Positions 14,584 through 16,041 of a DNA stretch of 64,000 nucleotides are shown here, piece after piece. The position numbers and the translations under genes are program-made. The notes beneath the pieces are model-generated. The model did no database searches and was not told where the DNA came from. It saw only the letters and a program-made list of their open reading frames with translations. Each line of letters opens with the position of its first letter. Position 1 is the stretch's first letter. This DNA is from Conexibacter woesei Iso977N (lineage in GTDB: Bacteria > Actinomycetota > Thermoleophilia > Solirubrobacterales > Solirubrobacteraceae), in NCBI RefSeq assembly GCF_000424625.1, contig NZ_AUKG01000001.1:1302001-1366000 (forward strand). The letters are read 5' to 3'.

Positions 14584-14658
14584 GGGGTCAGGTGGACGCC
14601 TCGGGTTGACGCCGACCCGTAGAATCGCCGGTGCCGCTGGGAGGCGGCAGGGACGCCA

Positions 14659-15273
14659 ATGAGCAACGGCACAAGGGTGAGGGTGTACGTGGCAGACGAC
14701 CATCCCGTTTTCCGGGATGGCGTTGTGCTGGCGCTGCGGCGGCGACCGGAGTTCGAGGTCGTCGGCGAGGCGCAGGACGGGCGCACCGCGCTGGAGGAGA
14801 TCCGCGTGCTGCGGCCCGACGTCGCGCTGCTCGACGTCAAGATGCCGGGGCTCGACGGGCACACGGTCCTGCGCGCGATCCAGCGCGACGACCTGCCGGT
14901 GAAGGTCGTGCTGCTCAGCGCGACCGTGCTGCCGCCCGAGGCGCGCGAGGCGCTCGCCGCCGGCGCGATGGCCTACCTGTCCAAGGAGGTCAACCGCGAC
15001 GCGATCTGCGACGCGGTCGCGGCCGCCGCGCGCGGAGACCGGCTGCAGGTCGACGTCGCCGAGCCGGTCTGGGAGCGCCCGCTGCTGTCGCCGCGCGAGC
15101 TGGAGGTCCTGCGGCTGACCGCGGGCGGACAGAGCGCGCCGTCGATCGGGCGCGAGCTGCACCTGTCGCCCGAGACGGTCAAGACGCACCTCAAGAACGT
15201 CTACGAGAAGCTCGGCGTGAGCGATCGCGCCGCCGCCGTGGCCGAGGGCATGCGCCGCGGCCTGGTCGAATAG
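14659..15273 (+). CDS. NarL/FixJ-family response regulator
   Basis: 204-aa two-component regulator. Receiver domain (residues about 6-122) with the acidic pair in YVADDHP, phosphoacceptor Asp in DVALLDVKMPGLDG, Ser/Thr in LLSAT and Lys in YLSKE. LuxR-type HTH (about 137-204): LSPRELEVLRLTAGGQS then SPETVKTHLKNVYEKLGVSDRAAAV. No histidine kinase is adjacent, so it is an orphan here. A TAGAAT (14620-14625) is a likely -10, giving a leader of about 33 nt with a GGAGG-like ribosome binding site. It closely resembles the orphan regulator at 49765-50397. Confidence 0.93.
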   Translation: MSNGTRVRVYVADDHPVFRDGVVLALRRRPEFEVVGEAQDGRTALEEIRVLRPDVALLDVKMPGLDGHTVLRAIQRDDLPVKVVLLSATVLPPEAREALAAGAMAYLSKEVNRDAICDAVAAAARGDRLQVDVAEPVWERPLLSPRELEVLRLTAGGQSAPSIGRELHLSPETVKTHLKNVYEKLGVSDRAAAVAEGMRRGLVE

Positions 15274-15345
15274 CCGGGCTTGAGGGCTCTCTCAGGGAAG
15301 TTCCCTCCATCGGGGGATGAGGAGCCGTTTCCGGGGCGCCGATCC

Positions 15346-15525
15346 TATGGCTACAACGGACGAAGCCCCCTGAACCGGCATCCCCTTCACCAGGTCCCCT
15401 CTGGTGCGTCGGAACTTTTCGTCCCACACAGCGACCATGTCATCCCTGCTCTGGACATGGCCGCATCGCAACGAGTTCGGGCGGGCGTGTCTTCCTGCTC
15501 TGCACGCCCGCCCGTCTTCGTTTGC
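15346..15525 (+). ncRNA. candidate small RNA with intrinsic terminator
   Basis: Gap of 279 bp between the response regulator and tRNA-Thr without a credible ORF. A TATGGCT (15346-15352) could be a -10 box. Downstream come ACCAG/CTGGT (15389-15405), a 7-bp stem CCATGTC/GACATGG (15435-15460), and a strong terminator: perfect 11-bp stem GGGCGGGCGTG (15479-15489 with 15503-15513) followed by GTCTTCGTTT. A transcript of about 160-170 nt is predicted. No known RNA family recognised; RNA evidence is absent. Confidence 0.4.
15479..15513 (+). terminator. intrinsic terminator before tRNA-Thr
   Basis: Perfect 11-bp GC stem, 13-nt loop, followed by GTCTTCGTTT. Confidence 0.75.
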
Positions 15526-15535
15526 GCGCGCTAGC

Positions 15536-15541
15536 TACACT
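15536..15541 (+). promoter_or_regulatory. -10 box TACACT of tRNA-Thr
   Basis: TACACT ends 11 nt before the mature 5' end of tRNA-Thr. Confidence 0.5.
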
Positions 15542-15552
15542 TCCGGCTCCCC

Positions 15553-15625
<73 letters not shown>

Positions 15626-15631
15626 TACGAG

Positions 15632-15651
15632 ATCCCCGCGCATGCGGGGAT
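15632..15651 (+). terminator. terminator after tRNA-Thr
   Basis: Perfect 8-bp stem ATCCCCGC-GCAT-GCGGGGAT followed by TTCGCGTTT. Confidence 0.75.
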
Positions 15652-15673
15652 TTCGCGTTTCCGGGCCGATCCC

Positions 15674-15679
15674 TAGGCT
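15674..15679 (+). promoter_or_regulatory. -10 box TAGGCT of the HU gene
   Basis: TAGGCT with a leader of about 70 nt before the HU start; the tRNA-Thr terminator lies just upstream. Confidence 0.45.
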
Positions 15680-15756
15680 CCAGAGGGCGGAACGACCGGT
15701 GCATCGTGCACCATAAGCCGCTGCGTCGTCTGGCGCCGAAACAGAGAAGGAGCAGA

Positions 15757-16041
15757 ATGCCCAGCATCAACAAGTCCGACCTCGCCGGCCTCGTCGCCGA
15801 GCAGGCCGATGTCTCGGTCGCCGAGGCCAAGGCGATCGTCGACGCCACGTTCGAAGTCGTCGCCGCTCGCGTCGCCGCCGGCGACGAGGTGTCGGTCGGT
15901 GGCTTCGGGAAGTTCTCGGTCGCCGAGCGGTCCGCTCGCACCGGTCGCAACCCGCAGACCGGCGAGACCATGCAGATCGCCGCGTCCAAGGCGCCGAAGT
16001 TCAGCGCCGCGTCGGCGTTCAAGACCGCCGTCAAGGGCTAG
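15757..16041 (+). CDS. hup: HU-family DNA-binding protein
   Basis: 94-aa nucleoid protein that bends and compacts DNA as a dimer. The sequence runs through the HU fold: MPSINKSDLAGLVAEQADVS, helix KAIVDATFEVVAARVAAGDEV, then VGGFGKFSVAERSARTGRNPQTGE (the DNA-clasping arm with the invariant RNP) and the C-terminal KAPKFSAASAFKTAVKG. It lacks the long Lys/Ala-rich tail of mycobacterial HupB, so it is a plain HU. The ATG at 15757 has AGAAGGA five to six bases upstream; reading further 5' would enter tRNA-Thr. A bidirectional terminator follows. Confidence 0.95.
   Translation: MPSINKSDLAGLVAEQADVSVAEAKAIVDATFEVVAARVAAGDEVSVGGFGKFSVAERSARTGRNPQTGETMQIAASKAPKFSAASAFKTAVKG

What the first reader, a model, noticed from the sequence alone, without database searches (positions are those of the whole stretch)
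15346..15525. Candidate small RNA between a response regulator and tRNA-Thr
A 180-bp gap without a credible ORF has a -10-like box, three stem-loops, and an 11-bp GC stem with a T-rich tail: the layout of an independent small RNA. It ends 40 bp before tRNA-Thr.
Basis: partly seen in the sequence, partly recalled or inferred. Interest (0 to 1): 0.5.

Follow-up and report, generated by a model that had tools for sequence, protein, structure and literature searches.

The report
Genus-restricted structured small RNA candidate
Between a regulator gene and a transfer-RNA gene of an actinobacterium lies a stretch that most likely makes a small folded regulatory RNA, found so far in three closely related genomes; it is a probable but ordinary kind of find, and its transcription has not been shown.

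Summary
The observation largely holds. The 279-nt gap between a NarL/LuxR-type response regulator (RR) gene and tRNA-Thr(GGT) holds three hairpins (H1, H2, H3) and no conserved reading frame. The same RR / RNA / tRNA-Thr order occurs in two other genomes of the genus (Conexibacter or near it). H2 shows three adjacent double compensatory changes around a 12-nt loop identical in the two genomes that have it. A covariance model gave strong full-length matches only in these three genomes. Best reading: a genus-restricted small RNA with C-rich loops. A conserved palindrome upstream fits control by the adjacent RR, and the H2 loop can pair with the RR's own ribosome-binding region; both links are inferred (pairing as good or better in 40 of 268 genes of G000, 4 of 207 of G001). 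A structured RR 3' UTR with terminator is a serious rival. No Rfam family matches. It could work like B11/6C, csRNA or OmrA/B RNAs; 6C membership was tested and not met, the other two were not tested. No expression data were available.

The parts
14639..14661 (+). RR leader and start codon; GCAGGGA at 14647-14653 is complementary to the H2 loop (UCCCUGC) and, with one G-U, to the H3 loop
   Evidence: pairing is inferred
14659..15273 (+). NarL/LuxR-type response regulator, proposed regulator of the RNA
   Evidence: Pfam Response_reg 8.4e-26 and GerE 1.1e-17; closest relatives 97, 94, 90 and 83% in the genus
15302..15322 (+). conserved imperfect palindrome TCCCTC-N4-GGGGGA plus TGAGG; candidate operator of the RR
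   Evidence: strict motif CCCTCNNNCGGGGGATG once in each of G000, G001, G005, none in G002, G004, G006 (G003 not searched); relaxed motif also right after another RR gene of G002
15336..15368 (+). conserved promoter-like block running into H1; TACAAC at 15352-15357 is a possible -10; 5' end of the RNA not mapped
   Evidence: alignments of three genomes; promoter role is inference
15358..15424 (+). H1: stems GGACGAA/UUCGUCC, CCGG/UCGG, CACCAG/CUGGUG; CAUCCCC on its 5' internal strand
   Evidence: one mid-stem pair is G-U, A-U, G-C in G000, G001, G005
15432..15463 (+). H2: stem with three adjacent double compensatory changes; loop AUCCCUGCUCUG (15442-15453) identical in G000 and G001; H2 absent from G005
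15473..15525 (+). H3: 12-13 bp GC stem with base extension (15473-15519), loop UCUUCCUGCUCUG (15490-15502), then an interrupted T-rich tail; likely terminator
   Evidence: the T-rich tail is nearly lost in G005
15553..15625 (+). tRNA-Thr(GGT), with its own -10-like TACACT at 15536-15541
   Evidence: the -10 is by eye

Best explanation
The stretch about 15358-15523 encodes a small structured RNA of about 165 nt, restricted to part of one genus. It folds into H1, H2 and a terminator hairpin H3. Its C-rich loops (AUCCCUGCUCUG, UUCCUGCUCUG) act by pairing with G-rich ribosome-binding regions of mRNAs and blocking translation. Its transcription is controlled by the adjacent response regulator, bound at the palindrome 15302-15317. 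One possible target is the regulator's own mRNA (GCAGGGA just before its start codon), which would make a negative feedback loop. Shown here: predicted structure, compensatory changes, conserved loops, conserved position, conserved palindrome. Inferred: transcription, promoter, control by the RR, mode of pairing, target.
For: Same RR / RNA / tRNA-Thr order in G001 and G005. G000 against G001: 41 of 41 pairs kept, 3 double and 2 one-sided changes; 8 of 82 paired columns differ against 20 of 80 unpaired (gap columns left out), and random placement of the 8 changes kept all pairs in 1 of 200000 trials; sliding the partners drops paired cells from 100% to 30-46%. G005 was found by a model built without it, E 7.5e-11, and keeps H1 and H3. 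The H2 loop is 12 of 12 identical although its stem changed. In the open frame through H2 three of ten codons change the amino acid and none changes silently (read). The strict palindrome occurs only at this locus in the genomes searched. The RR leader of G001 pairs with the H2 loop over 10 nt; 4 of 207 genes do as well or better. The three genomes with the RNA share GGCGGCAGGGA before the RR start, G004 does not.
Against: No expression data. Only two sequences carry H2, so the covariation rests on one comparison; the 3'-letter shuffle control reaches the observed value in 64 of 500, which is weak support. The structure was drawn from the same sequences. Without H3 the fold is not exceptional. 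In G000 the RR leader is not special: 40 of 268 genes (the RR itself counted) pair as well or better with the H2 loop, 68 with the H3 loop, 107 with the H1 strand; in G001 61 of 207 for H3 and 24 of 207 for H1. A search for AGAGCAGG-N3-10-ATG gave 18, 20 and 24 matches in G000, G001, G005 (reversed control 10, 11, 2), one of the G000 matches being the RNA's own locus on the other strand, and none of the 11 places I read looked like a gene start. Plain identity to G001 is not above that of the block around it (82% over 3 kb) or of the spacer before the RR (61 of 71). The three genomes are each other's closest relatives by RR identity, so shared leader and palindrome may be common descent.
Confidence: 0.5

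Rival explanations
1. RR 3' UTR: the hairpins are the structured tail and terminator of the RR mRNA, protecting it or being cut out as a 3' UTR-derived RNA, without a promoter of its own.
For: Only 84 nt from the RR stop codon to H1; no terminator-like or sigma-70 site found in 15200-15760; directly downstream of the RR in all three genomes that have it.
Against: The block 15336-15357 and the palindrome are conserved although they lie outside H1-H3; the H2 loop is kept while its stem is exchanged, which a mere terminator does not need.
Confidence: 0.33
2. Only H3 matters: a terminator that shields tRNA-Thr from read-through; H1 and H2 are drifting remnants.
For: H3 dominates the folding score and is well kept in G005, which lacks H2.
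Against: Three adjacent compensatory changes and the identical 12-nt loop in H2; H1 kept in G005 with a G-U / A-U / G-C series at one pair; the tail of H3 in G005 has few T.
Confidence: 0.12
3. A short protein-coding gene (the 84-aa frame 15280-15534, or an ATG at 15347 giving 8 codons).
For: The long frame is open in G000, and ATGGCTAC(A/G)ACGGACGAAGCC is shared by G000 and G005.
Against: Frame broken by indels, a stop in G005, no Pfam match, no pattern of silent changes, and the ATG is CTG in G001.
Confidence: 0.05

Closest known systems
6C / B11 RNA of Actinobacteria (Rfam RF01066)
   Same: Actinobacterial RNA whose hairpins show C-rich loops; B11 loops are reported to pair with ribosome-binding sites (PMC10470900, passages read).
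   Different: No RF01066 match at the locus and none in G000 at E up to 10; the loops here have at most three C in a row; three hairpins.
csRNAs of Streptococcus, controlled by the response regulator CiaR
   Same: Small RNAs controlled by a response regulator, complementary to a target between Shine-Dalgarno sequence and start codon (PMC4507080, part of the abstract and passages).
   Different: Five related csRNAs there, one locus here; no sequence comparison was made; control and target are untested here.
OmrA/OmrB of enterobacteria
   Same: A response regulator activates small RNAs that repress the regulator's mRNA (PMC12692685, passages): the logic proposed here.
   Different: A different phylum; Hfq-dependent (recalled); no sequence comparison was made; the feedback here is only a hypothesis.

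Membership tests
6C RNA (RF01066) | covariance-model match at gathering score | tested here: not met
   No match; 0 of 31 genomes over the cut-off and none at E up to 10 in G000
6C RNA (RF01066) | two hairpins, each with a run of about six cytosines in the loop (recalled) | tested here: not met
   H2 and H3 loops AUCCCUGCUCUG and UCUUCCUGCUCUG have at most three C in a row (sequence)
trans-acting small RNA | conserved secondary structure without a conserved reading frame | tested here: met
   three genomes only, H2 in two
trans-acting small RNA | discrete transcript with its own promoter and terminator | not testable with these tools
   no RNA data; both scans negative, conserved block upstream
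trans-acting small RNA | pairing with target mRNAs | tested here: inconclusive
   RR leader with H2 loop: 40 of 268 genes as good in G000, 4 of 207 in G001; pattern search gave no convincing target in the 11 places read
RR-controlled small RNA (csRNA-, OmrA/B-like) | the RR binds upstream of the RNA gene | not testable with these tools
   only a conserved palindrome at 15302-15317

The most novel reading that the evidence does not exclude
A new, lineage-restricted RNA family in which a response regulator and the small RNA encoded directly behind it form a closed feedback circuit: the RR activates the RNA through the palindrome, and the RNA's repeated C-rich loops shut off translation of the RR. 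Whether an RNA chaperone takes part was not examined. It could be a first small-RNA circuit described for Thermoleophilia.
Probability: 0.15. Interest if true: 0.6.

Novelty: new member of a known kind. Interest (0 to 1): 0.35.

Why it matters
Three searches of the held paper library (Conexibacter with small RNA; Thermoleophilia with noncoding RNA; Solirubrobacter with sRNA) listed 3, 1 and 1 papers, none of which by title and abstract start studies small RNAs of this class; a search for 6C RNA in Actinobacteria listed nine, none on this class by title. A structured RNA tied to a response regulator would give a concrete, testable case there, and a test of whether C-rich loops aimed at ribosome-binding sites occur outside 6C/B11 RNAs.

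Tried and rejected
1. Known family: Rfam gathering scan of the window (only the two tRNAs); permissive scan of 15270-15560 (six matches at E 0.93-5.9, all far below gathering); 6C in 31 genomes (none over the cut-off). Rejected.

2. Wider distribution: DNA search of 101 genomes gave 5 at E up to 0.01, three being genus members (own genome counted) and two short pieces of 20 and 27 nt. Model R1 in 151 genomes gave 13 at E up to 1, three of them strong. In 299 genomes of the class it gave 3 at E up to 0.01: G000, G001 and one match to the H3 part only (G288); G005 is not in that list, presumably not drawn. Both runs used stricter filters that lose weak matches. In the seven genomes of the genus, DNA search at E up to 1 gave matches in six, but outside G000, G001 and G005 only single short pieces at E 0.3-0.4.

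3. G002 (RR 83%): hairpins follow the RR there too, one with loop TCATCCCCCGTGCTC, which at first looked like a diverged copy. Alignment against shuffles gave no support for G000 and G001 (shuffles as good: 297 and 407 of 500) and a marginal 15 of 500 for G005, on a different stretch; R1 gave no match at E up to 1 in G002 and only 8.6 bits elsewhere in a G002 locus. Homology not shown.

4. G004 (RR 90%): the contig ends 55 nt after the last RR codon, with a tRNA-promoter-like GGTTACACTTCCGT, so the RNA is probably missing there; the assembly is 68% complete, so this is not settled.

5. Other RR genes: I read the downstream 300 nt of 30 loci (L042-L071, which include the three with the RNA) and 6 further loci by eye and saw no clear copy; R1 was run on only some of them (L048, L049, L050, L072-L075, L079, and loci of G002 and G004; no match above 9.7 bits).

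6. Targets through AGAGCAGG-N3-10-ATG: of 18, 20 and 24 matches I read 9 in G000, 1 in G001, 1 in G005; frames from the ATG were 4-167 aa and none looked like a gene start (by eye and length, no homology test). The same 14-mer in G000 and G001 lies in one shared sequence, in G005 at another place. The full-length duplex run is not informative, since it ignores internal structure.

Full report
What is there. The window holds a NarL/LuxR-type response regulator gene at 14659-15273, then 279 nt, then tRNA-Thr(GGT) at 15553-15625. The gap folds into three hairpins. The overall z-score of -4.93 comes mostly from the terminator-like H3: H3 alone -6.51, H2 alone -2.88, H1 alone -1.61, and 15346-15475 without H3 only -0.96. 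Folding energy alone would not make the case.

Conservation. The same order (RR, hairpins, tRNA-Thr) occurs in G001 (80% identity over the gap) and in G005. Plain identity is not unusual: a 3-kb block around it is 82% identical to G001, RR third codon positions are 155 of 205 identical, the loosely aligned spacer before the RR 61 of 71, the RNA region 162 of 183 by the same method. What is unusual is the pattern of change. On an alignment of G000 and G001 all 41 pairs are kept; 8 of 82 paired columns differ against 20 of 80 unpaired ones (gap columns left out), and six of the eight form three adjacent double changes in H2. Randomly placed changes kept all pairs in 1 of 200000 trials (the structure was drawn from these sequences, so this is favourable to it). 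RNAalifold on the same two sequences gives the same three hairpins with four two-sided changes. The shuffle control is weak with two rows (64 of 500 reach the observed values), and the slide control falls to 30-46% paired cells. The H2 loop AUCCCUGCUCUG is identical in both. G005 lacks H2 but keeps H1, with one pair running G-U, A-U, G-C over the three genomes, and H3 with a differently paired base; a model built without G005 finds it at E 7.5e-11.

Not coding. The frame is broken by indels of 1, 2 and 2 nt between G000 and G001, the matching frame of G005 has a stop, and through H2 three of ten codons change the amino acid while none changes silently (read).

Distribution. Strong full-length matches exist only in G000, G001 and G005, 3 of 7 genomes of the genus; none elsewhere among 151 genomes (relatives) and 299 genomes (class), own genome counted in each, sets overlapping, strict filters. 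G004 probably lacks it; G002 has other hairpins without demonstrable homology. Two of the four remaining genus genomes are incomplete (81% and 68%).

Upstream elements. Between the RR stop and H1 lie two conserved blocks: the imperfect palindrome TCCCTC-N4-GGGGGA-TGAGG (15302-15322) and GCGCCGATCC-nn-TG-R-CTAC-R-AC (15336-15357). The strict palindrome occurs once in each of the three genomes, at this place, and not in G002, G004 or G006. A relaxed form had 9 matches in 8 of 41 genomes (reversed control: 4); four of the nine lie directly after an RR gene, three being this locus and the fourth a different RR of G002, and the other five have no RR homologue in their 3-kb locus. This fits an RR operator, but is thin.

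Mechanism. Both loop motifs are C-rich and complementary to purine-rich ribosome-binding regions. The RR leader holds GCAGGGA 6-12 nt before its ATG; the H2 loop pairs there over 8 nt (one G-U) in G000 and over 10 nt in G001. Against simply called genes, 40 of 268 in G000 (the RR itself counted) and 4 of 207 in G001 pair as well or better with the H2 loop; for the H3 loop 68 of 268 and 61 of 207, for the H1 strand 107 of 268 and 24 of 207 (gene starts were guessed by a simple rule; 464 kb and 400 kb sampled; G005 not tested). The three genomes with the RNA share this leader and G004 does not, but they are also each other's closest relatives by RR identity. Negative feedback on the RR is a reasonable first hypothesis, no more. 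A pattern search for other targets gave nothing convincing in the 11 places read.

Comparison. In its proposed way of working it resembles B11/6C RNAs (C-rich loops against ribosome-binding sites, PMC10470900, passages), csRNAs (controlled by a response regulator, pairing near the start codon, PMC4507080, passages) and OmrA/B (feedback on the regulator, PMC12692685, passages). RF01066 membership was tested and not met; the other two are analogies and were not tested for membership.

Verdict. A conserved, structured RNA element, most likely a genus-restricted small RNA, with an RR 3' UTR as the serious alternative. Modest interest; transcription is the missing fact.

Noticed in passing
G002:C1:2799521-2799861 (L185): Four weak 6C-model matches (25.1 bits each, below cut-off) spaced 91 nt apart: apparently a tandem array of hairpin units.
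   Followed up: no
G042:C4:7289-7358 (L179): Best 6C-like match among 31 relatives, 36.3 bits against a cut-off of 47, E 0.0037: possibly a diverged 6C RNA.
   Followed up: no
window 14606-14625: Before the RR gene TTGAC and TA(C/G)AAT are conserved in G000, G001 and G005 with the hexamers 8 nt apart, too close for a standard sigma-70 promoter.
   Followed up: no
window 15757-16041: An HU-type DNA-binding protein gene follows tRNA-Thr here; the blast alignment with G001 ends at 15665, so this neighbour is not shared there.
   Followed up: partly
G002:C1:5059900-5062300 (L076): After the RR of G002 lie a long hairpin and one with loop TCATCCCCCGTGCTC; that stretch contains the reverse complement of CGGGGGATGAGG, the motif upstream of the RNA in the other three genomes.
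   Followed up: partly
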